Below, in pieces: positions 25,013-59,010 of a DNA stretch of 64,000 nt. Location: NCBI GenBank assembly GCA_018812925.1, contig JAHJCU010000005.1, forward strand, positions 1 through 64,000, in the 5' to 3' direction. Positions within the stretch are counted from its first letter, which is position 1. Every line of letters starts with the position of its first letter. The translations under genes were made by a program, and so were the position numbers. The DNA is from Candidatus Omnitrophota bacterium. GTDB taxonomy: Bacteria > CAIJMQ01. The notes beneath the pieces are model-generated. The model did not search any database, was not told the origin of the DNA, and saw only the letters and a list, made by a program, of their open reading frames with translations.

Positions 25013-25811
25013 TTACGATGGTGACGGCAACAGAATCGGTAAAACAGTGGATGGAGCGAAAACAAAATATATCAACGATGTTGGGCTTGGGCTTGTTCAG
25101 GTGCTGATGGAAACAACTGATGAAGATACGGTTTTGGCTACTTATAATTATGGAAACGATTTGATTTCTTCCATAAACCATACACTATCAACCATAAACT
25201 ATTTTCACTATGATGGTTTGGGAACAGTGCGCCAATTAACCGATGACGCAGAGGCGGTTGTGGCGGAATATACTTATGAAGCATTCGGAACATTAATTGC
25301 AAGCACAGGTGCTACAACCAATGCCTACGGCTTCACAGGGGAACAGCAGTTTGGAGAGGCGGATAACTTGGTATTCTTGAGAGCGAGGTATTATGATTCG
25401 AGGATAGGGAGGTTTATATCAAGAGATCCGATTGGGTATCGAGGAGGTATTAATCTATATGTATATTGTGATAACAACCCAATAAATTTAATAGATCCAT
25501 ACGGCAAAATGGGAGTAGTTGGGAGTATTATTTCTATTCCTCCAGGAGTAAGTAAATGGTTAAAGGGGGTTCAATTATTTGCATGTTCTGGTTGTTTAGG
25601 ATGTTTAGCGGGGACAGAAATTGGGTGTATAGGAACTCCAAATTGGGATGAGTGCGTAAGAGATACACTAAAAGATTATTGGGATGATGTACAAGAAGCA
25701 TCTAGCAACCCAGGATGTGCTACGGGAAAGAATTATCATAGCCTTGCGTGTGTAGGACTTTGCGCTGCTTGTATACCAAACCTATTTCCAACTTTCCCCG
25801 GATTATTATAA
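25011..25811 (+). pseudogene. Orphan Rhs C-terminal cassette 1
   Basis: In frame from the repeat boundary: RYDGDGNRIGKTVDG, YHYDGLG-like FHYDGLGTVRQLTDD, EYTYEAFG, GFTGEQQ, and the end-of-core motif RARYYDSRIGRFISRDPIGYRGGINLYVYCDNNPINLIDPYG. About 100 residues of variable tip follow, rich in Cys and Gly and without a motif I can name. The N-terminal shell-forming part of the Rhs protein is missing, so this is an orphan tip cassette, not a working toxin by itself. An internal ATG at 25047 could start translation. It is followed by a small membrane protein, the expected immunity position, and by a second cassette sharing about 370 bases. Confidence 0.8.
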
Positions 25812-26146: not shown

Positions 26147-26957
26147 TATAAACGATGTCGGGCTTGGGCTTGTTCAGGTGCTGATGGAAACTGACGACAC
26201 CGGGGATGCCGTTCTGGCTACTTATAATTATGGAAACGATTTGATTTCAGCTATAAACCATACACTATCAACCATAATAAACTATTATCATTACGATGGA
26301 TTGGGCAGTGTGAGACAGCTAACCGATGACACAGAAGCGGTAGCTGCAGAATATACTTATGATGCTTTTGGCAACTTAATCGCTTCTTCGGGTAGTGGAG
26401 AAAATTCCTACGGCTTTACTGGGGAACAGCAGTTTAATGAGGCGGATAATTTGATTTTCTTACGCCATCGTTATTATAGTCCATCTATTGGTAGATTCAT
26501 AAGTAGAGACCCATTTCATGGGTGTATCGTATCACCAATAACACGCAATCGATATCCTTATTGTATGAATAATCCTGTAAATTTTATAGATCCCGCAGGA
26601 TTGCTTGCAACACATGGTAATTGGTGTGGCCCTGGTCACAGTGCAGGCGAAAGTGGAAAACCATCAGAAAGTGATTGGACAGCTAATAATGCTGTTGATT
26701 GGCTTGATCAGATATGCAAAGAGCATGATGCATGCTTTCAAGGAGTTGACCCAGCGACTGGTAAAAGTGAATGTACAGACGACAAAAAGAATAAGAATAA
26801 ATGCAATGAAGAAATGTGTGGTAAGTTATTGAGTCCTGTGAATATAGTCCGTGGTGCAACTGGATGGGGTTTAGAAAACAAGCTTACAGGTAGAACAACT
26901 TATACAGCAGCAATTGCCGCATTTTGTTTCCCGGGAGGAATAACGCCTTTTTGGTAA
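26147..26957 (+). pseudogene. Orphan Rhs C-terminal cassette 2 with phospholipase A2-like tip
   Basis: Repeats the Rhs end of cassette 1 at DNA level from about 26147 (NDVGLGLVQVLMET ... HRYYSPSIGRFISRDPF ... YCMNNPVNFIDPAG). The tip then differs: GNWCGPGHSAG, and DWLDQICKEHDACFQG about 35 residues later. WCGPG and CxxHDxC are the calcium loop and His-Asp catalytic site of phospholipase A2-like domains; later paired cysteines (ECTDDKK, KCNEEMC) fit its disulfides. It would attack membrane lipids. ATG at 26178 opens the frame. As in cassette 1 the N-terminal Rhs part is absent, so expression probably needs recombination into a complete rhs gene. Confidence 0.8.
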
Positions 26958-27964: not shown

Positions 27965-29347
27965 GGTGCAAAAATTATACACGTTTGTTTTTAAGTGAAA
28001 AAACAGGTATTTTTTAAAGCAGCTATCTTGCTTTTCTTCTGTTAATTAACTTGGTAGTTTTAAGACGTCTATCAAGTTTAACTTTTATGCTTACCAAGAC
28101 AGAATCATACCCGTAAGTTTATCTTCTTTATCTTTACTACTTCATTTCATCCTCGATAATAATGTCTGATTAACCCTCCCAGTTTTGATTTACATCGGAT
28201 ATTTCCACCACTCTTTCTTGGTGTATATTCAAGCGGCATATTATCCATAGAAGAATGTGGACGTGTTGTGTTGTAATAGGTTACATATTCACTTATAAGG
28301 TATCTTAGATGTTGTTCTCCAAATACAATGAAATGATTTAAGCATTCCTTCTTTATAGTTCCTACCCAGCTTTCAGCATAAGAATTCATGTTGGGTGACA
28401 TAAAGGGAATCTTTTGCACGGTAAAGTCATCATTTTTAAACAACTCATCGAATTCTCTTGAGAATTTTGTGTCTCTATCTCTTATTAACAGCTTTTTCCC
28501 ATTTTTGTCACAAGAGAGAAGAGGTAGGATATTTTGAGTCTGTTTATTTACTCATTCCTGGTTAGGATATCCAGTAGCTCCGGTAACGTAGACTCTTCTT
28601 GTTTTGATATTTATAAAGAATAGTACAAAAAACATCTTTGGTTCTAATGACGTTAGCACTTGTTTGGTAAAGAAATCACACGCCCAGAGGGTTTGGAAAT
28701 GCCTTTTGACAAAACTATCCCAGCTATCCCTTGACCTTTCAGGGGCAGGATCAAGGTTATTTTCCTTTAAAATGTTCTTTATGCTGGTTTTTGATAAGCG
28801 GTTAATGCCTAGTTTCTTTAGCTCGCCCAAGATCCTGACATAGCCCCATGCATTCTCCTTGGCCATTTTTACTACTAAGAGCCGAATCTCTCACGGGGTC
28901 TTAGGCCTACCGCGTTTTTTGGTTTTTTCAGAATCCTTTTTCCGTTTATATCTTCTAATCCAAAGTAGAAAGGTCTCATATCTTACAATAGAGATTATAT
29001 TTCTAATATCTTTTCCAAGAGGAGCACCAAATTTTACAAGTTTTCTTCTTTCAATAGGTGTTGGACGTATACTTCTGCCAATACGCTTACGTAATATTTC
29101 ATTCTCAACCTTTAGGTACTGGATTTGACGAGTTAAATTCTCCTGTGTCATTCTGCCCAGAAAAGACAAAAGTTCACTGAATACATTTCTTTGATTAAAC
29201 TCCCAGTAAGAAAGCATAGTTTTCTCCTTATATTATTTGATAAACCTTGTTGAAAACAAGTTGTTCGGGAGTATAATATCACTAGAAAGGTCATTGAAGA
29301 ACGATTGATTTAACTTACCAGAGAAGCGTATATAATTTTTGCACACC
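27965..29347 (-). mobile_element. Decayed insertion sequence, DDE integrase type
   Basis: About 1.38 kb with terminal inverted repeats: GGTGCAAAAATTATACACG at the left and, on the other strand, GGTGTGCAAAAATTATATACG at the right. The inside holds a minus-strand transposase broken by two in-frame TGA codons. An internally deleted relative is at 56505-56768, and single ends are at 23728 and 27829. No target-site duplication is obvious. Confidence 0.75.
28147..29217 (-). pseudogene. Transposase of the IS, interrupted by two TGA stops
   Basis: Three consecutive same-frame pieces. The N-terminal piece (29217-28891) has a leucine-zipper-like helix and RRGRPKTP-like linker KKRGRPKTP. After a TGA comes EIRLLVVK then ENAWGYVRILGELKKLGI and WACDFFTKQVL (first catalytic Asp) to YPNQE. 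After a second TGA comes VNKQTQNILPLL, LLIRDRDTKF (second Asp) and NSYAESWVGTIKKECLNHF (Glu), ending RPHSSMDNMPLEY. This is a rve/IS481- or IS3-like DDE enzyme with all catalytic residues still legible. The stops make it inactive. The second TGA sits where relatives have Trp, consistent with a TGG to TGA point mutation. Confidence 0.8.
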
Positions 29348-29430
29348 GTGCGCAATCCATTCACCAATCTGCTTTAAAGTACAGTTTCTTTCAGCTATAA
29401 TGGTTTTTGTTGAAAGGGGGTTCTGATAAA

Positions 29431-31290
29431 TTGAACGAGAATCAACCTATACGACGGGGTGATAAATCCTTGGCGGTCTTCCTATCGGTTATGAAGAGAA
29501 CGGCCACGGTATTTAAGAATGTCTTCCATAGTTTCCCTTTGCACAGCCTGTCTATAATTTTCTTTACCCTCGTCACCGGCCTCCTGCCGGTTGTTAATCT
29601 CTGGATTTCCAAGCTGCTTTTAGACAACATTGTGGCCTATCTTTCTGCCTCCGGCAAAAGCGAATTATTAGAACCAGTGCTGCTTATGCTGGGATTGCAA
29701 GTGGGAGTGGGAGTGACGACCATACTCCTCACCCAGGCAGATTCTTATATCTCCACAAAGCTATCGCAGCTAATCACCTTTAAAATGGAGCAGGAGATTT
29801 ACCAGCATTGCTTATCCATGGATTATGAGTTTTTTGAAACACCCAAACAGCAAGATAAGCTTTTCCGGACCCAAGCACAGTCTGCAGGAGCATCAAACAG
29901 TCTTTTCAGCACCGTCATCTCTATCGTCAGAAAGATAGTGACCATTATTTCTTCGGGCGTGGTTTTATTCCTGTTTAGTCCTCTTCTGTGTCTCGTCGCC
30001 GTTAGCATAGCCATTCCCAATCTTATTTTAAATATTAAATTAGCCTTTGAAAATTATGAACTCATAGAAAAACGCTCCGAACGAATCCGTAAGACAGGCT
30101 ATGTTGCTTCTTTATTATTGTACAAGAATTATGCCAGAGATAATATATTGTTCGGAATTGGAAATCATTTCTTTAATATGTGGAAAAGCCTTCAAAAAAA
30201 GACCTTATCCGAAGACTTAACTATACAATTGAGGAGAAATAAGTTCGGCGGTATAGGCGATATCATAAGCCATATTGCTTATTTTGGTTCATATATTTAC
30301 ATAGTATGGGCAACAGCAAAAGAAGCAACGGGCACTATCGGTTCGGTGGTGATGAACGTGGGGCTTTTTGTCAATGCCCAGGGACACATCCAGGGAATTG
30401 CCGACGACTTCGCCAATTTATATAGCAATTCTATTTTCCTCAATGATTATTATAATCTTCAGCAGGTGGAATCTAAAATTGAACGGCAGAAAACTGGCCT
30501 TCCCCTTAAGGGCAGGGTTGATTCCATAAAATTTGAAAACGTCTCCTTCAAGTATCCCCAGTCCGAAAGATACGCCTTAAAGGATATCTCCTTTGAGATT
30601 AACTTGGGAGAGTGTGTATGTCTTGTTGGCGGCAACGGGGCGGGAAAGTCAACCATCATTAAGCTAATCCTGCGCTTATACGATCCTACCTCGGGGAACA
30701 TATCGATTAACGGGAGAAATATTAAGGATTATTCAACCGATGAGCTGAGAAGGATATTCGGAGTGCTTATGCAGGATTTTAGCCTTTATCTACTCTCCGT
30801 AAAGGAGAATATCATTGTCGGCGATATAAAAAAAGCGGATAATGAAGCGGAGCTACACAGGGCTATCGATTGTGCCGGACTCGGAGAAACAGTTAAGGCT
30901 TTACCCCACGGAGAGGCTACGATATTGGGGAAAATGTTTGGAAATGGTGAGGATTTATCCATTGGGGAATGGCAAAGGTTGGGCTTGGCAAGAATCTTCT
31001 TCCGTAATGCCCCCCTTATCATCCTGGACGAGCCCACCAGTGCCCTCGACCCCCAAATGGAATCCACTGTCCTGGAGCATTTCCGCAAAATGACTGTGGG
31101 AAAGCTATCCATTATTGTATCGCATAGGTTCTCCAGCGCAAGAATTGCCGATAGAATAATTGTTGTTGATTCCGGTAAGGTAGTGGAAACCGGGACCCAC
31201 GCCGAATTAATGAAAGAGAATGGTCTTTATTCCCGGTTGTTCCGCATTCAAAGGAAGAGATATGTAGGGGACGAGCCCAACGAGGATTAA
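29431..31290 (+). CDS. ABC exporter (permease-ATPase fusion), probable peptide exporter
   Basis: 619 residues from the TTG at 29431, preferred because GAAAGGGGG lies about 10 bases upstream; an earlier TTG (29407) opens the frame. N-terminal exporter domain with about six helices, for example LSIIFFTLVTGLLPVVNLWI, VLLMLGLQVGVGVTTILL and IISSGVVLFLFSPLLCLVAV. C-terminal ATPase: Walker A GGNGAGKST, Q-loop LMQDFSL, signature LSIGEWQRLGLAR (Ile for the usual Gly), Walker B LIILDEPTSALD, and SHRFSSAR. No C39 peptidase domain, so any leader removal needs another protease. It lies upstream of two cysteine-rich peptide genes and two radical-SAM maturases and has similar, more GC-rich base use, so it is probably their exporter. 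Confidence 0.85.
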   Translation: MNENQPIRRGDKSLAVFLSVMKRTATVFKNVFHSFPLHSLSIIFFTLVTGLLPVVNLWISKLLLDNIVAYLSASGKSELLEPVLLMLGLQVGVGVTTILLTQADSYISTKLSQLITFKMEQEIYQHCLSMDYEFFETPKQQDKLFRTQAQSAGASNSLFSTVISIVRKIVTIISSGVVLFLFSPLLCLVAVSIAIPNLILNIKLAFENYELIEKRSERIRKTGYVASLLLYKNYARDNILFGIGNHFFNMWKSLQKKTLSEDLTIQLRRNKFGGIGDIISHIAYFGSYIYIVWATAKEATGTIGSVVMNVGLFVNAQGHIQGIADDFANLYSNSIFLNDYYNLQQVESKIERQKTGLPLKGRVDSIKFENVSFKYPQSERYALKDISFEINLGECVCLVGGNGAGKSTIIKLILRLYDPTSGNISINGRNIKDYSTDELRRIFGVLMQDFSLYLLSVKENIIVGDIKKADNEAELHRAIDCAGLGETVKALPHGEATILGKMFGNGEDLSIGEWQRLGLARIFFRNAPLIILDEPTSALDPQMESTVLEHFRKMTVGKLSIIVSHRFSSARIADRIIVVDSGKVVETGTHAELMKENGLYSRLFRIQRKRYVGDEPNED

Positions 31291-31291
31291 A

Positions 31292-31468
31292 TCTCTGCCC
31301 AGGGAAAGTGTTGCCTATGTGGTCAGCCAGCACATTGAGATGACATTGCGCTACGCTCATGCTACTATGGAGAAGAAGAGATGGTACATAGAGATTCTCA
31401 ATATGGACACCAAGCCCCAGATGGCTACCGGTCCGGCCCAAGGTAATGAAGAAGCCATCTCCGGATAG
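31292..31468 (+). pseudogene. Tyrosine recombinase C-terminal remnant
   Basis: Open frame with VSQHIEMTLRYAHATMEKKR, matching the box II end of XerD-like recombinases where the Tyr in MTLRYAH is the nucleophile. No start, no box I. It contains direct repeat A (31314-31336). The following stretch to 31580 has another fragment with GEIVRIEVKIDEEDIAVRLLD that I do not recognise. Confidence 0.55.
31314..31336 (+). repeat. Direct repeat A, left copy
   Basis: 23 bases, CCTATGTGGTCAGCC followed by AGCACATT, identical at 35577-35599. The two copies bracket the peptide cassette. Confidence 0.75.
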
Positions 31469-31606
31469 CTCCCGCAGGGGAGAAATTGTCAGAATTGAGG
31501 TGAAGATTGACGAGGAAGATATTGCCGTCAGGCTCCTGGACATTATCCGGGAGGAAACCAAGGTAGTTATTGACCTATAGGAGGTAGAGATTATCACCTC
31601 CAAAGC

Positions 31607-31852
31607 TATCCGCATCATCCCCAGTCTAATGTAGTAGTAGAAAGGTTTAACAGAACCATTCAGGAAGAGTTCGTATATTGGAATGAAGAATTGTTAAATG
31701 ATAATATTGCTTTTAATAAAAAACTTATGGAGTATCTGACTTTTTATAATTTGGAAAGAGGACATAAATCCTTGAATTACCAGACACCTTTAAAATACCT
31801 CATTAATCACTGCGGTTTTTCCAATATGTTATGGACTCTTACAACTACTTGA
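31607..31852 (+). pseudogene. DDE transposase C-terminal remnant
   Basis: Open frame YPHHPQSNVVVERFNRTIQEE, then EYLTFYNLERGHKSLNYQTP and LKYLINHCGFSN, the end of an IS481/IS3-type integrase core. Upstream catalytic parts are missing. Its TGA stop overlaps the -35 box of the peptide promoter, so the promoter may have been formed or captured at an IS boundary. Confidence 0.65.
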
Positions 31853-31865
31853 CAAGAATAAAGGA
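31848..31865 (+). repeat. Direct repeat B, left copy
   Basis: CTTGACAAGAATAAAGGA, identical at 35602-35619. It includes the -35 box of the peptide promoter. Confidence 0.7.
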
Positions 31866-31877
31866 TTGAGGTATAAT
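31849..31877 (+). promoter_or_regulatory. Strong sigma-70-type promoter of the peptide cassette
   Basis: Perfect consensus TTGACA (31849-31854), 17-base spacer, TATAAT (31872-31877). The first precursor gene starts 29 bases later with an AGGAGGTG ribosome site. A copy of the -35 region (18 bases) recurs at 35602-35619. Confidence 0.8.
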
Positions 31878-31906
31878 AGACAAACCAAAGAGGAGGTGGG
31901 ATAAAT

Positions 31907-32140
31907 ATGATTAGGTCTATAGATAGGCAGATGGCTTCTTTAGAAGTGTCAGTGTCAGGGTGTAGTTGCGCCTGCGCTTGTAGTTGCTCTTGTAGCTGCG
32001 ACTGCAGCGGTCTTCTCAACATCTCTTTTATAACCGAGGCAGCTTGCAGCAGTGCTGACGCTTCTGGAAGTAGAGCATATCCACGTATGAGGAACAGCGG
32101 CACAGTCCGTGAGGCGCATGGGACAACAGTCCTTGAATAA
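31907..32140 (+). CDS. Cysteine-rich RiPP precursor A
   Basis: 77 residues. Eight cysteines alternate with Ser, Ala or Asp at positions 19, 21, 23, 25, 27, 29, 31 and 33 (CSCACACSCSCSCDC), with one more at 47. Ahead is a short 18-residue leader-like segment; after the Cys block comes SGLLNIS and a 35-residue Ser/Ala/Arg-rich tail. It has a consensus promoter and an ideal ribosome site, and lies upstream of two radical-SAM/SPASM proteins and downstream of an exporter. This is the layout of radical-SAM-modified (thioether/ranthipeptide-like) peptides of the Clo7bot/SCIFF kind, but the strict every-second-residue pattern is not a family I know. A metal-binding peptide is the main alternative. 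Confidence 0.75.
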   Translation: MIRSIDRQMASLEVSVSGCSCACACSCSCSCDCSGLLNISFITEAACSSADASGSRAYPRMRNSGTVREAHGTTVLE

Positions 32141-32191
32141 TAGTAAAGAAAAGAGATAAAAATAAATAAGCCAAAGAGGGGGTGAGAAAGA

Positions 32192-32419
32192 ATGCTAAAG
32201 ATTGTACCTACTACTCAGCCTACTACTCAGCCTGCGGTGATAACGTGCGGGTGCGGCTGTCAGGGTAGTTGCTATGGTGCCTGCGACTGTAGCGGTTTGT
32301 TCGTCATCTCCACTATAAGGTGCGCTGCTGTAGGAAGTATGGCAGAGAGCGGTGTCGATAGCAGTACCGGTAGCAGCAACCGCAGAGCTTATGGTGGCGG
32401 GACCCGCCCTTGGATATAA
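32192..32419 (+). CDS. Cysteine-rich RiPP precursor B
   Basis: 75 residues. Cysteines at 19, 21, 23, 27, 31, 33 and 44 (CGCGCQGSCYGACDC). C19, C21, C23, C27, C31 and C33 fall at exactly the same positions as in precursor A, and both continue with CDCSGL at 31-36 and IS at 39-40, without any gap. The leader differs and has a tandem TTQPTTQP. The tail is Ser/Gly/Arg-rich and ends RPWI; both tails contain RAY. GAGGGGGTGA ribosome site. Conserved cysteines and CDCSGL with unrelated leaders suggest that the maturase recognises the core or follower rather than the leader. Confidence 0.75.
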   Translation: MLKIVPTTQPTTQPAVITCGCGCQGSCYGACDCSGLFVISTIRCAAVGSMAESGVDSSTGSSNRRAYGGGTRPWI

Positions 32420-32569
32420 GTGAGGAAGAGAGATAACAGTGGATAAGAGGACAATGTTTTATTTCCCCCTTATCCGGCCCATTAGGGCGTAGCAAATAAG
32501 CAAAAGCAGGAAAGCTTCCCACAAGAATAGGGTCTGTCGTCCCTGACAGGATAGGAGATTACACGCAAA

Positions 32570-34024
32570 ATGCCTTTTATTCACAAATTTGAAACTGAGA
32601 AGGCAAAATACATCTACGATGCTCCTACCTCCCAGATTTTAGAGGTAGATAAGGTGACCTTTGCCATCATTGACGATATTGATATCCTATCCGAAGATGA
32701 AATCATAGCCAAATACGCTCCCCACTATCCTCGCCACCTTCTCTTACAAGCTCTGAGAGACTTGCAAAAGGCGCGGTCTGAGCAGAATCTATTCTTGGAC
32801 CATCATTACCAATCAGTATCCGATATACCCCTCTACGCGGACTATACTCCTCATCCTAAAATGCTTGTTCTTCAATTGACAGAAAAGTGTAATCTGAGAT
32901 GCTGTTATTGCCTTAGCTCTTATCGAGAAAATTCATCTCTGGATATGACTTTTGCAACCGCAGCCGCGGCAGTCACTTACTTTGCAGAGATTGCTAATGG
33001 GGATAAGTTAGCGATACTTTTCGGCGGCGGTGAACCCCTCCTTAAATTTCCGCTAATCAAAAAAATAGTTGCCCATCTTGAGAATCTAAGACCGGGGAAG
33101 TCAAAGCTATATTACCTGAGCACAAACTTGGTGAATCTTACCGAGGAAATGATTGATTTTTTCCTTGAACATGATTTTATGCTTCAGGTTAGCCTGGATG
33201 GGCCCAAGGCTAAGCACGATCGCTATCGAGTTACTCCGGATGGCCAGGGAACATATGAGACGGTGGTAGGCAACCTCATGAAGCTGAAAAAGAGGTCAGC
33301 GGATTATATCCGCTCCAAGGTAAAATACAGTTGTGTGGTAGCTCCTCCCTATGACCCGGCTGAGATTATCCAATTTTTCTCTTCTTTTGAAAGACCATGG
33401 GCTTACAATATCAACATGGTTTCGGGAGCGGGAACAACCTTCTTCCGGGATTACTGTCGCTCTACGGATAGTGTATCGCTTTCAGCAATTCCCTTTACCG
33501 AAAAGCTGAGGGAGGTCTTGGGAAAGCATGACGGGCGCGGAGAAGAGGACATTTTATACGGTATGGTTAGCGATATGCATGGCGGATGGTTGGCGCGTTT
33601 GCACGAGCGACGAATCTTGAGTCACCCTGTTCTCTGGACGAACCATTCCGGCCAGTGTCGGATAGCCACCGAAAAACTCTGCGTTGATGTCAAGGGACGT
33701 TTTTTCCCCTGCGAGAGGCTTATTTTCAATAGGGATTATATCATCGGGGATGTTGACAAGGGGGTGGAGAACGAGAGCATCATTAAGGTCTGTGAGAAGT
33801 TTGATAAATTACGTTCGCACCGGTGTCGAACCTGCTGGGCCGTGAGGCTCTGCCCTTTTTGCTTACAGGATTTAATGTTTTATGAGGATGACCAGAAAAA
33901 ACTTGATGCTATCTGCGATGAAGTGATGAAGCCCTTAGTGCATGAGCGGTTGCGGTTGTACTGTTCCCTTCTGGAGGAGAACCCCAAGGCTTTTGATAAA
34001 CTCAGTTCCAGTGGCGATTTATGA
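32570..34024 (+). CDS. Radical SAM/SPASM peptide maturase 1
   Basis: 484 residues. N-terminal RRE-like segment FIHKFETEKAKYIYDAPTSQ-like (about 1-75). Radical SAM core with C107, C111 and C114 in EKCNLRCCYC, GGGEPLLKF as the SAM-binding GGE, and VSLDGPKAKHD. C-terminal SPASM region (about 365-450) with GQCRIA, KGRFFPCERL, and CRTCWAVRLCPFC to hold auxiliary Fe-S clusters. The layout is that of CcpM/SCIFF-type maturases that form thioether or C-C links on cysteine-rich peptides. It starts 150 bases after precursor B and stops in an ATGA overlap region with the second maturase gene. Target residues on the precursors are unknown. Confidence 0.87.
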   Translation: MPFIHKFETEKAKYIYDAPTSQILEVDKVTFAIIDDIDILSEDEIIAKYAPHYPRHLLLQALRDLQKARSEQNLFLDHHYQSVSDIPLYADYTPHPKMLVLQLTEKCNLRCCYCLSSYRENSSLDMTFATAAAAVTYFAEIANGDKLAILFGGGEPLLKFPLIKKIVAHLENLRPGKSKLYYLSTNLVNLTEEMIDFFLEHDFMLQVSLDGPKAKHDRYRVTPDGQGTYETVVGNLMKLKKRSADYIRSKVKYSCVVAPPYDPAEIIQFFSSFERPWAYNINMVSGAGTTFFRDYCRSTDSVSLSAIPFTEKLREVLGKHDGRGEEDILYGMVSDMHGGWLARLHERRILSHPVLWTNHSGQCRIATEKLCVDVKGRFFPCERLIFNRDYIIGDVDKGVENESIIKVCEKFDKLRSHRCRTCWAVRLCPFCLQDLMFYEDDQKKLDAICDEVMKPLVHERLRLYCSLLEENPKAFDKLSSSGDL

Positions 34025-34035
34025 GGGAGGCGGGA

Positions 34036-35574
34036 ATGTTAATCCATAAGTTTGAAACGCAGGATAAGAAGTACATATATGACGCAGCTACCAACCGTAT
34101 CCTTGAGGTTGACGAAGTAATTTATGAATTGATTGAGGATTACGGATCACTGTCATCGGAGGAGATGATAGCCAAATACGGGAGCAAATACGATTCCCAG
34201 CTCATCTCCAAGAGGTTCGCCGAAATAGAAAGTATCCGCAGGAAGCAGGGTTGCTTCTCTTTATCCGGGCCTGATGTGGGGTTCCTCATGACGCGCCCAG
34301 CGGCGGCCCAAAAGCTGGAAAGCACCTGCTCCACAATGGCAATTGAAGTTACGGAGCAGTGTAACTTACGGTGTACATATTGTGTCTTTTCCGGCGGATA
34401 TCTGGAAGGGAGGGCGCATTCATCTCGCAAGATGAGCTTTGAGATAGCCAAGGAGGCGATAGATTACCTTGTTGAGCACTCTTACCAAAGCGGAGACGAT
34501 TTTCTTTCCTTGAACTTCTATGGCGGTGAGCCCTTGTTGAATTTCCAGCTAATAAAGAAATGCGTGAACTACTGCGAATCCCTCAAGACCAAGAAACCCT
34601 GGCTTTTTGGCTTTACCACCAATCTTACTATATTAAATCCCGAAATCCTGAAATTCTGTATAAAACACGGCATCGCCATCACGGTAAGTTTGGACGGGCC
34701 CCGGACCGTACACGACCGTTGCCGAGTAGACAGCAACGGCAAGGGCAGTTTCGATAAAGTAATGCAAAATCTGGAGATGATAAGGCATTATGATAAAGAA
34801 TACTTCCGGACGAAAATTCTTTTTAATATCGTTCTCTCTTTGCCTGTTAACTGGTTGCAAATAAATGATTTCTTTACCCGGGAACAGGGTCTTGAGGGCA
34901 ATCCTCTAAGTCTTTCAGATGTTGAGGAAGGCAATGAGAGTTATTTTTCTCAGTTCCCTGAAGCAGATTTTGGTTATGATGGATATGATGAGCTGCGGAG
35001 AAAGTTCTATGAGATGGCCATTGCCGGCAAATTGTTTTCCCACGCAACAAAGACAAGAATGCCCAGAAAGGGGACCACGGAAGAAATTCTCTCCTCGGCA
35101 ACGGGAGCGCTAACTTTCTCCCAGTTTACCGCCCCCCTTCTAAAAATGGACAGGCGCCCTATCTTCCCTGGTTGGCCCTCTCACAAAATAGGGCACAGCG
35201 GGCCCTGTCTTCCCGGGGACAGGAAGCTGTTTGTAGATGTGCGGGGTCGGCTCTATCCCTGCGAAAAGGTCCCTTATAATGACCTTTTCTGCATTGGGAA
35301 CGTGAAAACGGGAATGGATACGGATAAGGCCTATGACCTCATCCAACAATTCTACGAACTGAGTGCAGCTGAGTGCAGTCAGTGCTGGGCTTTTCGGTTA
35401 TGCGGTCAATGTATGGTAAGGGCGAGCGAGAAGAATCGTTTCAGCAGGGCTAAGAAATTGGCACGCTGCGGGCAAGAGAAAGCGGGCCTACACCAAAGAT
35501 TAATGCTTTATTGCTCTATCCTGGAAAAAAGGCCAGACGCCCTTGATGACAGGGGAACAGTATCTTTCTCATAA
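34036..35574 (+). CDS. Radical SAM/SPASM peptide maturase 2
   Basis: About 512 residues from the ATG at 34036, chosen because GGGAGGCGG precedes it and MLIHKFET matches the start of maturase 1; an ATG at 34021 overlaps the previous stop. Clear paralogue of maturase 1: N-terminal YIYDAATNRILEVDEV, EQCNLRCTYC (CxxxCxxC), YGGEPLLNF, VSLDGPRTVHD. SPASM part GPCLPGDRKLFVDVRGR, LYPCEKVPY, and CSQCWAFRLCGQCM. It carries a longer insert before the SPASM region (about residues 300-390). Two maturases and two precursors suggest either pairing or sequential modification. Ends 3 bases before direct repeat A. Confidence 0.87.
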   Translation: MLIHKFETQDKKYIYDAATNRILEVDEVIYELIEDYGSLSSEEMIAKYGSKYDSQLISKRFAEIESIRRKQGCFSLSGPDVGFLMTRPAAAQKLESTCSTMAIEVTEQCNLRCTYCVFSGGYLEGRAHSSRKMSFEIAKEAIDYLVEHSYQSGDDFLSLNFYGGEPLLNFQLIKKCVNYCESLKTKKPWLFGFTTNLTILNPEILKFCIKHGIAITVSLDGPRTVHDRCRVDSNGKGSFDKVMQNLEMIRHYDKEYFRTKILFNIVLSLPVNWLQINDFFTREQGLEGNPLSLSDVEEGNESYFSQFPEADFGYDGYDELRRKFYEMAIAGKLFSHATKTRMPRKGTTEEILSSATGALTFSQFTAPLLKMDRRPIFPGWPSHKIGHSGPCLPGDRKLFVDVRGRLYPCEKVPYNDLFCIGNVKTGMDTDKAYDLIQQFYELSAAECSQCWAFRLCGQCMVRASEKNRFSRAKKLARCGQEKAGLHQRLMLYCSILEKRPDALDDRGTVSFS

Positions 35575-35576
35575 AA

Positions 35577-35599
35577 CCTATGTGGTCAGCCAGCACATT
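35577..35599 (+). repeat. Direct repeat A, right copy
   Basis: Identical to 31314-31336. Here it is immediately followed by repeat B, whereas the left copies of A and B are 511 bases apart. Confidence 0.75.
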
Positions 35600-35601
35600 T
35601 T

Positions 35602-35619
35602 CTTGACAAGAATAAAGGA
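35602..35619 (+). repeat. Direct repeat B, right copy
   Basis: Identical to 31848-31865 and includes TTGACA. A TATGGA lies near the -10 position, so this is a weakened version of the peptide promoter. Confidence 0.7.
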
Positions 35620-35669
35620 AAGCCGGTATGGATACTCTTCAGAACCAAAAGGGAGGTGAATAAGGTAAT

Positions 35670-35744
35670 ATGGACATAGAGAGAGAGATTGAAGAAGTTT
35701 GTAAAGAAAAATGGGTTAAAGCTGCAAGCAGGGTCAAGAGTTAG
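35670..35744 (+). CDS. Short ORF behind the second promoter copy
   Basis: GGGAGGTG, 11 bases, then ATG and MDIEREIEEVCKEKWVKAAS to a TAG within the next dispersed fragment: 24 residues, helical and charged. It could be the leader of a lost third precursor or the truncated start of another gene; nothing proves it is expressed. Confidence 0.3.
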   Translation: MDIEREIEEVCKEKWVKAASRVKS

Positions 35745-35860
35745 AGCATCAATTTCTTCGTATTTCCCAACGGAATCAAGATTTTTAGGGACTGTGTGTA
35801 AAATCGCTCCCCAAGACTTCATATCTTCTCCAGAATATCGCAATCTATCTCTGATATAGT
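35725..35860 (-). pseudogene. Dispersed coding fragment, copy 2
   Basis: Matches 1996-2131. On the minus strand it encodes RYSGEDMKSWGAILHT and GKYEEIDALTLDPA. Same unknown protein end as copy 1. It separates the peptide locus from the maltodextrin locus. Confidence 0.5.
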
Positions 35861-56849: not shown

Positions 56850-57689
56850 CTATAATAATTTATACCAGACGTTCATGCTCTCAATCTTTCCCGAGATATT
56901 AGTATTGTTAACAAGCGTTCCGCCGAACTGATAATGATGCTTGGCGAAAGTGATATTCATGCCAGCTGATAAAGCCCTGGCGATAGTATAAGCAACCAGA
57001 ACACCTTTAACTACCAAATTCTTTTCCATGTTCTGCAGGAGTCTTTGTGCGATTCCCTGGGACCTGTATGGCGGCAATGTCGCGAAATCAGTCATTTCAG
57101 CGTTCTTTTGCTCTTTGTCAATTTCAGCAGATGATATAGAAATAATCTGCCCCTTTTCACAGGCCACATAATAATCAATATTATCGCTCATGGTGCTTGA
57201 TATATACTCAGGATCAAAAATCGGAAACGGATACGAATCAAATACTTTCTTAAATACAGAACACATCTGGCCAACGTCTTCGGGAATCGCCTTGCGGATT
57301 TCATATTTAAAATCCTCCTTAAAGAAATGAGCTGTACCGGATTTTTCTTTGGCTAATTGGATAATCGCATCGATTTTCTGTGGGGATGACAAAACATCTC
57401 GTCCATTAAAAAACTTGGACATAAAAAACCCGTCTTCTCGACCCTTAAAAAAATTAGGGATATGTGCTTCTTGTTGAAACTCGAAATTTTCAAAATCATG
57501 CCTGCGCTTTTCAGGAACCTTAGCAAAAATTTTTGAATAGGCGTTGTCTTTTACTAAACACTCCAACATCTTAATAATGCCGGGCATGTCTTCCTCGTTC
57601 AGCTTCATCAAATAAACACGATCACTTAATTTTCCATGCTGAACTTTAGACTTTCCGAATACTTCTATTTTGTCCCATTCCATCATCAA
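56850..57689 (-). CDS. ablB: Beta-lysine N6-acetyltransferase
   Basis: 279 residues. N-terminal half with FGKSKVQHGKLSDRVYLM and FKGREDGFFMSKFF. C-terminal GNAT fold (about 140-279) with IRKAIPEDVGQMCSVFKKVF, ATLPPYRSQGIAQRLLQNME (acetyl-CoA loop RSQGIA) and YQFGGTLVNNTNISGKIESM. This is the ablB pattern of putative beta-lysine acetyltransferases. With ablA it makes N-epsilon-acetyl-beta-lysine, an osmolyte. It is 4 bases after the ablA stop, leftward, so the two are one operon. Confidence 0.9.
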   Translation of the reverse strand: MMMEWDKIEVFGKSKVQHGKLSDRVYLMKLNEEDMPGIIKMLECLVKDNAYSKIFAKVPEKRRHDFENFEFQQEAHIPNFFKGREDGFFMSKFFNGRDVLSSPQKIDAIIQLAKEKSGTAHFFKEDFKYEIRKAIPEDVGQMCSVFKKVFDSYPFPIFDPEYISSTMSDNIDYYVACEKGQIISISSAEIDKEQKNAEMTDFATLPPYRSQGIAQRLLQNMEKNLVVKGVLVAYTIARALSAGMNITFAKHHYQFGGTLVNNTNISGKIESMNVWYKLL

Positions 57690-57693
57690 TACT

Positions 57694-59010
57694 TTAAGAT
57701 TTTTTATTACGCCTTTTTATACGTTCTGTACCTTGCGGTGTTAATGAAGTCGTATCGTTATAGTCATCAATCAGTTTACGGATTCCCACAGCCTTATCTT
57801 CATGTGCGCCTTCCAGATTCAACTGTAATTTACAATCATCACATTTGCGATCACAAAAAATCGGCTCATAAGAGTCCGGCTCTTTATACGTACAAATAAC
57901 GCCTTCATAATTTCTCAGAATCACCTTATTTGTTGACCAGGAAATCAGATAATTGGGCATTACCGGGATCTTCCCTCCGCCCCCTGGAGCGTCAATCACA
58001 TACGTTGGCACAGCCATTCCCGTTGTATGACCGATCAAATTTTCCATAATCTCAATCCCTTTACCTATCGGTGTGCGAAAATGCATTAGACCTTCTGAAA
58101 GATCACATTGATATAAATAATAAGGTCGCACCCGATTTATTAGCAATCGCTGAACCAATATCTTCATAATGCGCGGACAATCATTAATACCAGAAAGCAA
58201 TACTGTTTGATTTCCTAGTGGAATTCCGGCATCAGCCAATTTACGCAAAGCTTCTCTCGACGATTCAGTAAGCTCACGAGGGTGATTAAAATGCGTATTA
58301 ATCCATAGAGGATGATATTTTTTCAACATTTTTACCAGGGTGCTTGTGATTCGATATGGAAGCACAACCGGCATACGCGTTCCGATCCTTATAATTTCTA
58401 CATGCGGAATCTTACGCAATTCTGAAAGTATCCATTCCAGATAATCATCCGAAAGCATTAATGGGTCCCCTCCGGATAATAAAACATCCCTGACCTGTTT
58501 TGTGTTACGAATATATGCCAAACCTTTTTTGATCTGCGCTTTATTCGGAATATAATCGCGATCCCCAACCTTGCGTTTACGCGTACAATGCCGACAATAC
58601 ATAGAACATAAATTACTAACTAAAAAAAGCACTCGATCAGGATATCGATGGGTAATTCCTTTTACTGGCGAATCATGATCTTCTTGAAGAGGGTCTGACA
58701 TTTCGCTTGGGCATGAATCCAATTCATGAATTGACGGGAAAGACTGCATGAAAATTGGATCATAATCAACATTTTTAGTATCAATCAGTGATAAATAATA
58801 CGGCGTAATGGCAATTGGAAATTTTTCGACAGTCTTTTTAATCTGCTCCCGACGATCCTTTTTTAATTTCAGGCCCAATAGATTTTCAGCTGTCTCCAAA
58901 TCCCGCACAGTATGCGCAACCTGCCATCTCCAATCAAACCAATTGGATTTTTTCTTCGTTTTTCGGTCAATAAACGCCTCAATACGTTGCCGATTGTTTT
59001 TTTCACGCAT
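57694..59010 (-). CDS. ablA: Lysine 2,3-aminomutase
   Basis: 438 residues. Radical SAM/PLP enzyme of the KamA family: N-terminal [45 protein letters not shown] with CxxxCxx[35 protein letters not shown], and [20 protein letters not shown] with the PLP-Lys. A C-terminal zinc site CDRKCDDC follows. Converts L-alpha-lysine to L-beta-lysine. With ablB it supplies the compatible solute N-acetyl-beta-lysine, suggesting life at changing salinity. A hairpin about 90 bases upstream may attenuate transcription. Confidence 0.95.

What the first reader, a model, noticed from the sequence alone, without database searches (positions are those of the whole stretch)
31849..35574. RiPP cassette with alternating-cysteine precursors and two radical-SAM maturases
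Two short peptides have their six shared cysteines at exactly the same positions (19, 21, 23, 27, 31, 33), followed by identical CDCSGL and IS, although leaders and tails are otherwise unrelated. Precursor A has cysteine at every second residue over 15 positions. A consensus promoter, two paralogous radical SAM/SPASM proteins and an exporter surround them. Established: such proteins form thioether or C-C links on cysteine-rich peptides (SCIFF, Clo7bot/CcpM, ranthipeptides). Not matched: the C-x-C-x ladder and the long follower after the core. This may be an undescribed class of modified peptide.
Basis: partly seen in the sequence, partly recalled or inferred. Interest (0 to 1): 0.82.

Follow-up and report, generated by a model that had tools for sequence, protein, structure and literature searches.

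The report
Two-peptide cysteine-ladder radical-SAM peptide cluster
A small bacterium from a little-sampled lineage carries a horizontally acquired gene cassette that probably makes two cysteine-rich, thioether-crosslinked peptides, using two sister radical-SAM enzymes related to known peptide-antibiotic maturases; one peptide has cysteine at every second residue over 15 positions, the longest such ladder found here beside an enzyme of this family.

Summary
Precursors A (31907-32140) and B (32192-32419) share six cysteine positions (19, 21, 23, 27, 31, 33) and CDCSGL. A 12/12 sigma-70 promoter, two RRE/radical-SAM/SPASM proteins overlapping by 4 bases, and an upstream ABC exporter complete the cassette, a 44-47% GC island in ~35% GC DNA among insertion-sequence debris.

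Both enzymes score best against CcpM, then the RumMC sactipeptide maturase, but below every cut-off. Their SPASM cysteine spacing matches RumMC's within one residue and differs from SCIFF enzymes. The precursors match no family. The closest relative found (a distant genome, G462) has the same peptide-maturase-ABC order and a shorter ladder (CRCACSC). A second genome (G748) has CICYCTCICTC beside a related enzyme. A long tail after the cysteines is normal in this group.

Best reading: a two-component sactipeptide-like RiPP. The enzymes act as a pair, as in thuricin CD, and link ladder cysteines to the C-terminal tail, giving a nested hairpin. RiPP nature is well supported; bond chemistry and activity are inferred. 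New variant of a known kind, not a new class.

The parts
29407..31290 (+). ABC exporter (MsbA-like, no C39 peptidase domain); probable peptide exporter, separate transcription unit; true start may lie downstream of this TTG
   Evidence: Pfam ABC_tran 1.8e-30 and ABC_membrane. Best matches among fetched loci are exporters of RiPP clusters: G462 cassette 32% over 595 aa, lachnocin cluster 28% over 576 aa
31314..31336 (+). 23-bp direct repeat, first copy (upstream edge of the island)
   Evidence: exact second copy at 35577-35599; only these two in the whole genome with up to 3 mismatches
31849..31877 (+). consensus sigma-70 promoter TTGACA-17-TATAAT
   Evidence: 12 of 12 matches, the only such site in 29-36.5 kb
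31907..32140 (+). precursor peptide A (77 aa): 18-aa leader, ladder C19-C33 (8 Cys, every second residue), CDCSGL, 44-aa C-terminal part with one more Cys (47)
   Evidence: no match in NCBIfam, Pfam or PDB
32192..32419 (+). precursor peptide B (75 aa): 18-aa leader, Cys 19, 21, 23, 27, 31, 33, CDCSGL, C-terminal part with Cys 44; tandem paralogue of A
   Evidence: no match in NCBIfam, Pfam or PDB
32570..34024 (+). radical SAM/SPASM maturase 1 (484 aa): N-terminal RRE, C107-x3-C-x2-C, full SPASM cysteine set
   Evidence: TIGR04068 247 bits (cut-off 500), NF035951 207 bits (cut-off 720); CteB 5WGG 1e-29 including the RRE; motifs; RRE-like b3a3 N-terminus in a low-confidence model
34021..35574 (+). 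radical SAM/SPASM maturase 2 (517 aa): RRE, C114-x3-C-x2-C, full SPASM; start overlaps the stop of maturase 1 (ATGA), so probably translationally coupled
   Evidence: TIGR04068 366 bits (cut-off 500); CteB 5WGG 3e-38; G462 maturase 36% over 507 aa, E 6e-116; RRE residues 10-75 pLDDT 59-91
35577..35619 (+). second copy of the 23-bp repeat followed directly by a second copy of the promoter -35 region (CTTGACAAGAATAAAGGA); downstream edge of the island

Best explanation
This is a horizontally acquired RiPP cassette of the sactipeptide-like CcpM/RumMC kind that makes a two-component pair of thioether-crosslinked peptides. Proposed steps. (1) A and B are co-transcribed with both maturases from the consensus promoter (inferred from layout and overlapping genes). 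(2) The 18-residue leaders are bound by the N-terminal RRE domains of the maturases (domain shown, binding inferred). (3) Maturases 1 and 2, made from overlapping genes, act together on both precursors, as TrnC/TrnD do on TrnA/TrnB of thuricin CD (inferred by analogy). (4) Each removes a hydrogen from backbone alpha-carbons in the tail beyond CDCSGL. The alternating cysteines, all on one face of an extended strand, each close a thioether to the opposite strand; SGL forms the turn and the result is a nested, zipper-like hairpin (inferred). What looks like a 'follower' is then the acceptor strand of the mature peptide. (5) The peptides leave through the ABC exporter; the leader is removed by a protease not encoded in the cassette (inferred). 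(6) The likeliest role is a two-peptide bacteriocin (inferred, weakest step).
For: Maturases: best family CcpM, second RumMC for both. RRE-like N-terminus in the alignment to CteB and in the models (residues 1-75). Intact CX3CX2C and SPASM: rSAM2 CX12GX4CX37CX2CX5CX2CX18C, rSAM1 the same with X17. The published RumMC1/2 hallmark is CX13GX4CX36CX2CX5CX2CX18C (PMC8188230). SCIFF enzymes in the same set have CX2CX5CX3C. The first tree puts both enzymes on the CcpM/Apre_1838/huazacin side, split from SCIFF at 99/99. Conserved cassette: in G462, precursor + maturase + peptidase-less ABC, where maturase (36%, 6e-116) and ABC (32%, 3e-90) are each the best match to the window proteins, and the precursor has CRCACSC. 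In G748 a 54-aa peptide with CICYCTCICTC sits directly upstream of a related maturase. Among 3,519 ORFs in the fetched non-viral loci (own-genome copies left out), ladders of four or more alternating Cys occur only in these two peptide genes and in one ORF antisense to the G748 peptide. Architecture: first Cys at residue 19 here, 20-22 in CLI_3235, Apre_1838 and RumC2 (PMC8188230, PMC8172795). In RumC2 a CxC pair (C22, C24) forms nested bridges to N35 and E31 (PMC8172795). Thuricin CD: two precursors, two rSAMs in one complex (PMC12093266).
Against: No curated maturase or precursor cut-off is reached. No known sactipeptide has an 8-Cys ladder (own knowledge plus the papers read), and eight nested bridges may be sterically impossible; some Cys may stay free, form disulfides or bind metal. 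The tails of A and B have little conserved beyond I39, S40, I42, A45, A46, S49, S53 and G54, so acceptors cannot be named. No immunity gene or leader protease is adjacent. The second tree does not resolve where the two enzymes sit among the subfamilies and places rSAM2 beside the SCIFF branch with weak support, 69/81. Substrate linkage rests on adjacency only.
Confidence: 0.6

Rival explanations
1. Ranthipeptide rather than sactipeptide: the same cassette, but the enzymes link Cys to beta- or gamma-carbons (as SCIFF or PapB enzymes do), with small local rings instead of a long hairpin.
For: The closest solved structure by sequence is CteB, a SCIFF thioether synthase. PapB and SCIFF models also score. 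CDC offers an Asp acceptor.
Against: SPASM spacing is CX5CX2C as in RumMC, not CX5CX3C as in SCIFF. SCIFF and PapB scores are below cut-off and below CcpM and RumMC. Only one Asp lies in the core (D32). The first tree separates the SCIFF clade at 99/99.
Confidence: 0.2
2. The peptides are metal-binding (metallothionein-like CxC arrays) or metallophore precursors; the radical SAM enzymes modify only a few residues, and the free ladder thiols bind metal.
For: Alternating CxC is the classic metallothionein pattern (own knowledge). A has more ladder Cys (8) than any characterised sactipeptide has bridges.
Against: Two intact maturases with RRE domains sit directly downstream, the ladder-plus-related-maturase pairing recurs in two distant genomes, and an exporter is associated.
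Confidence: 0.1
3. Each maturase is dedicated to one precursor (rSAM1 to one, rSAM2 to the other), giving two independent peptides rather than one cooperative pair.
For: The two enzymes are only about 33% identical and not resolved as sisters (p-AU for a clade 0.33). RumMC1 and RumMC2 are highly homologous and can each modify the precursor peptides (PMC8188230).
Against: The genes overlap by 4 bases, suggesting equal and coupled synthesis. A and B share the whole core pattern. In thuricin CD neither enzyme works effectively alone (PMC12093266).
Confidence: 0.3
4. A decaying, recently imported island that is no longer functional.
For: GC 44-47% against about 35% around. IS and tyrosine-recombinase fragments, duplicated edges and a truncated ORF at 35672. 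No hit of comparable strength in the two congeneric genomes.
Against: All five genes are intact, with RBSs, a perfect promoter and all catalytic cysteines; the core retains synonymous differences between A and B.
Confidence: 0.12

Closest known systems
CcpM / CLI_3235 system (TIGR04068 + TIGR04065; e.g. SacP23 of Paenibacillus polymyxa)
   Same: Best-scoring maturase family for both enzymes; short Cys-rich precursor with an 18-20-aa leader, CxC motifs and a long C-terminal tail; ABC transporter beside it
   Different: Scores 247 and 366 bits against a cut-off of 500; precursors do not match TIGR04065 and lack its leader; no TIGR04066, TIGR04069 or S8 protease partners; two precursors and two maturases instead of one
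Ruminococcin C (RumC; RumMC1/RumMC2, NF035951)
   Same: Second-best family; SPASM cysteine spacing within one residue; two maturases in the cluster; CxC near the leader end
   Different: Scores 207 and 270 against 720; RumC has two separate two-Cys hairpins, not an eight-Cys ladder
Thuricin CD (TrnA/TrnB + TrnC/TrnD)
   Same: Two precursors and two radical SAM enzymes in one cluster; [quoted passage not shown]
   Different: Three Cys per peptide (5, 9, 13) against 8 or 6 in the cores here; TrnC/TrnD were not compared here by sequence
   Same: Same gene order precursor-maturase-peptidase-less ABC; best match of both maturase and ABC; CRCACSC ladder
   Different: One precursor and one maturase; no CDCSGL; shorter ladder
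SCIFF / CteB ranthipeptides (TIGR03974)
   Same: RRE + radical SAM + SPASM; thioether chemistry; closest solved structure (5WGG)
   Different: CX5CX3C SPASM ending, separate clade in the first tree, score below cut-off, unrelated precursor

Membership tests
RiPP cassette (general) | Short precursor with leader beside a modifying enzyme that carries an RRE | tested here: met
   A, B and both maturases on one strand; RRE region aligned to CteB and b3a3 fold in the models
RiPP cassette (general) | Modified, cleaved product | not testable with these tools
   needs expression and mass spectrometry
CcpM / CLI_3235 | Maturase above TIGR04068 cut-off (500 bits) | tested here: not met
   247 and 366 bits
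CcpM / CLI_3235 | Precursor matches TIGR04065 | tested here: not met
   no hit at E <= 1, while four CLI_3235 precursors from other loci hit at 1e-7 to 1e-8
CcpM / CLI_3235 | TIGR04066, TIGR04069 and S8 protease partners in the cluster (PMC4573289) | tested here: not met
   none among the neighbouring proteins scanned with Pfam or NCBIfam
RumMC / ruminococcin C | Maturase above NF035951 cut-off (720 bits) | tested here: not met
   207 and 270 bits
RumMC / ruminococcin C | SPASM hallmark CX13GX4CX36CX2CX5CX2CX18C | tested here: met
   CX12GX4CX37CX2CX5CX2CX17-18C, within one residue; the same CX5CX2C ending is shared by CcpM, Apre_1838 and huazacin enzymes, so it marks the group, not the family
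Sactipeptide | Cys to alpha-carbon thioether | not testable with these tools
   inferred from enzyme kinship only
SCIFF / ranthipeptide | Above TIGR03974 (425) or NF047865 PapB (340) cut-off | tested here: not met
   rSAM1 142 and 152 bits, rSAM2 175 and 196 bits
SCIFF / ranthipeptide | CX2CX5CX3C SPASM ending as in SCIFF enzymes | tested here: not met
   both window enzymes CX2CX5CX2C; all SCIFF rows CX2CX5CX3C
Two-component sactibiotic (thuricin CD type) | Two precursors and two radical SAM maturases in one cluster | tested here: met
Two-component sactibiotic (thuricin CD type) | The two enzymes form a complex and act jointly; the two peptides act in synergy | not testable with these tools
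   4-bp gene overlap is only suggestive

The most novel reading that the evidence does not exclude
The C-x ladder defines a distinct, widely scattered subclass of radical-SAM peptides, present in at least three unrelated lineages here, in which up to eight alternating cysteines are stitched to an opposing tail strand in one continuous thioether zipper. Two non-identical maturases divide the work (inner and outer rungs, or the two peptides).
Probability: 0.25. Interest if true: 0.75.

Novelty: new variant of a known kind. Interest (0 to 1): 0.5.

Why it matters
Known sactipeptides carry few bridges (three per thuricin CD peptide, four in RumC). A ladder of eight alternating Cys with a matching C-terminal strand would test how far these enzymes can iterate and how ring order is set. 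It would also be a second two-peptide/two-maturase case beside thuricin CD. The G462 and G748 loci show that the ladder recurs beside related enzymes in distant genomes, so it can be mined for. Peptides that no curated model finds mark a gap in current precursor libraries.

Tried and rejected
Viral-contig scans with A, B and rSAM2 and with a CDCSGL-x2-IS pattern: no relatives. tblastn of A and B in plasmids at E <= 10: chance hits only. A loose CxCxC...CDC pattern in viral contigs gave 120 loci, mostly low-complexity; three with a radical SAM gene are a different system. The four CxxxCDCSG matches in Bacillota are chance hits, not in small Cys-rich ORFs. AlphaFold models of both maturases had low confidence (mean pLDDT 44 and 42), so no fold search was run. 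TIGR04065 in Bacillota (2 of 349 genomes) gave two CLI_3235 comparators, neither with a long ladder. The source phylum could not be named: genome handles are anonymous and only six other genomes of its class were in the samples. SCIFF membership was rejected on SPASM spacing and the first tree. 'Undescribed class' was rejected because tails and short ladders are normal in the group.
Full report
WHAT IS THERE. The window carries, all on the + strand, an ABC exporter (29407-31290), a perfect sigma-70 promoter (31849-31877, 12 of 12), two small Cys-rich genes A (31907-32140) and B (32192-32419), and two radical SAM/SPASM genes (32570-34024 and 34021-35574) that overlap by four bases. A has Cys at 19, 21, 23, 25, 27, 29, 31, 33 and 47; B at 19, 21, 23, 27, 31, 33 and 44.

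IS IT CHANCE? No. A against B scores 96, with a maximum of 64 in 2000 shuffles. The pattern CxxxCDCSG(L) has two matches in the own genome, A and B, and none in 192 other genomes. In 399 Bacillota genomes it has four stray matches, none in a small Cys-rich ORF. The ladder uses mixed Cys and Ser codons, and four of the eleven identical residues at core positions 19-36 are encoded by synonymous codons, so it is a protein-level pattern, not a microsatellite. A and B are tandem duplicates: core DNA 70% identical over 74 nt at spacing 285, RBS regions 81% at spacing 286. The tails keep marginal similarity (35 of 2000 shuffles for residues 34 onward, 257 of 2000 for 39 onward); the leaders have diverged beyond recognition.

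ORIGIN. The cassette is 44-47% GC in a genome region of about 35%. Integrase-core (rve) fragments lie on the upstream side at 28147-28443 and 31691-31852. A 23-bp sequence found nowhere else in the genome occurs at both edges (31314 and 35577), and the promoter -35 region is repeated at 35602. The two congeneric genomes held have no match to rSAM1 at E <= 0.001 and none to rSAM2 at E <= 1e-35. This points to horizontal acquisition. The genome (1.47 Mb, 14 contigs) belongs to a lineage of which only six other genomes of the same class appeared in the samples.

THE MATURASES. Both score best against TIGR04068 (CcpM; 247 and 366 bits, cut-off 500) and next against NF035951 (RumMC; 207 and 270, cut-off 720); PapB and SCIFF score lower. 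By sequence the nearest solved structure is CteB, 5WGG (E 1e-29 and 3e-38), with the RRE included in the match. The AlphaFold models are poor overall, but residues 1-75 of both form the b3a3 pattern of an RRE with moderate to good confidence. The radical SAM and SPASM cysteines are complete. Spacing is CX12GX4CX37CX2CX5CX2CX18C in rSAM2 and the same with X17 in rSAM1, against CX13GX4CX36CX2CX5CX2CX18C published for RumMC1/2 (PMC8188230). Every SCIFF enzyme in the same set ends CX5CX3C. In the first tree both window enzymes fall with CcpM, Apre_1838, lachnocin and huazacin enzymes, split from SCIFF at 99/99. In the second tree, with G462 and G748 added, their exact place is not resolved: rSAM2 sits beside the SCIFF branch with weak support (69/81), and a rSAM1+rSAM2 clade is neither shown nor rejected (p-AU 0.33).

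RELATIVES. The best relative found is in G462, a 5.0-Mb single-contig genome of another lineage. Its maturase is 36% identical to rSAM2 over 507 aa (E 6e-116), is preceded by a 66-aa peptide MSEVMDWGECSIDSIYASKCDSNACKSGCRCACSCPPGVNSARNSDATSASNTVSVYATYKETETH with an RBS, and is followed by a peptidase-less ABC that is also the best match to the window exporter (32% over 595 aa, E 3e-90). G748 has MNIATYDEVVEGPDGCICYCTCICTCSLDTASQATVGKQGAVAGGAIGALITRG upstream of a related maturase, a SPASM protein and an ABC. In 3,519 ORFs of the fetched non-viral loci (own-genome copies left out), ladders of four or more alternating Cys occur only in these two peptide genes and in one ORF antisense to the G748 peptide. 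CLI_3235 peptides (L016, L017, L026, L028) and Apre_1838 peptides (L029, L031, L032) show the same plan: about 19-20 leader residues, CxC motifs, long tail.

HOW IT PROBABLY WORKS. Established in relatives: RumMC2 abstracts an alpha-carbon hydrogen and forms Cys-alpha-carbon thioethers (PMC8188230); in RumC2 a CxC pair, C22/C24, is joined to N35/E31 as nested bridges (PMC8172795); in thuricin CD two enzymes form a complex and jointly modify two precursors (PMC12093266); SacP23 keeps 42 residues after a 19-residue leader (PMC10731318). Applied here by inference: the leader is bound by the RRE; alternating Cys on one face of a strand are joined to the strand after the SGL turn; the so-called follower is the acceptor strand; and the coupled enzymes act as a pair. 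Export by the ABC protein and a bacteriocin role are plausible but untested. No leader protease or immunity gene was recognised nearby.

KNOWN OR NEW. No membership cut-off is met for CcpM, RumMC, SCIFF, PapB or any precursor family, so it should not be filed as a member of any of them. It works like a sactipeptide system of the CcpM/RumMC group. What is new is the length and regularity of the ladder, the shared CDCSGL, the two-peptide/two-enzyme layout outside the thuricin lineage, and the recurrence of ladders beside related enzymes in distant genomes. That is a new variant of a known kind. The literature searches returned no paper that could be recognised as describing such ladder precursors, but the library holds open-licence papers only.

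Noticed in passing
L134 6665-10441, L085 2898-6114, L179 1-1717 (IMG/VR viral contigs, - strand): Three related viral contigs encode a protein ending in a long Cys ladder (ECECTCTCTCTC...CSECDCGD) directly next to a radical SAM/SPASM enzyme closest to PapB (201 bits, cut-off 340); in L085 and L134 a B12-type radical SAM protein follows. Possibly a phage that crosslinks its own structural protein.
   Followed up: partly
L095 4164-4760, L142 7657-8154, L079 6655-7143 (viral contigs): Other viral ORFs carry long CxC ladders, two of them at or near the C-terminus (...CNCNCACACQCACDCGNG); no radical SAM gene related to the window maturases was detected in these fetched loci.
   Followed up: no
L205 (G748 contig 49) 482-5073: A separate ladder-peptide cluster: CICYCTCICTC peptide, maturase in the huazacin-like clade, a SPASM protein distantly like TIGR04193, and an ABC.
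   Followed up: partly
L195 8423-10203 (G031 contig 24): High-GC genome with an rSAM1-like maturase (521 aa) followed by an 80-aa ORF containing PCNCPC; possible further relative.
   Followed up: partly
35577-35750: After rSAM2 the 23-bp repeat, a promoter -35 copy, an RBS and a 24-codon ORF (MDIEREIEEVCKEKWVKAASRVKS) end abruptly: a truncated second gene copy or the insertion scar of the island.
   Followed up: partly
31298-31470 and 31691-31852: Debris between exporter and promoter: a fragment that reads like a tyrosine-recombinase C-terminus (VSQHIEMTLRYAHATMEKKR; by eye, no Pfam hit) and an integrase-core (rve_3) fragment.
   Followed up: partly
25047-25811 and 26178-26957: Two tandem RHS-core fragments upstream of the island with near-repeated starts.
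   Followed up: no
56850-59010: Lysine 2,3-aminomutase AblA (769 bits, above cut-off 525) followed by a possible acetyltransferase gene: likely N-acetyl-beta-lysine osmolyte synthesis.
   Followed up: no
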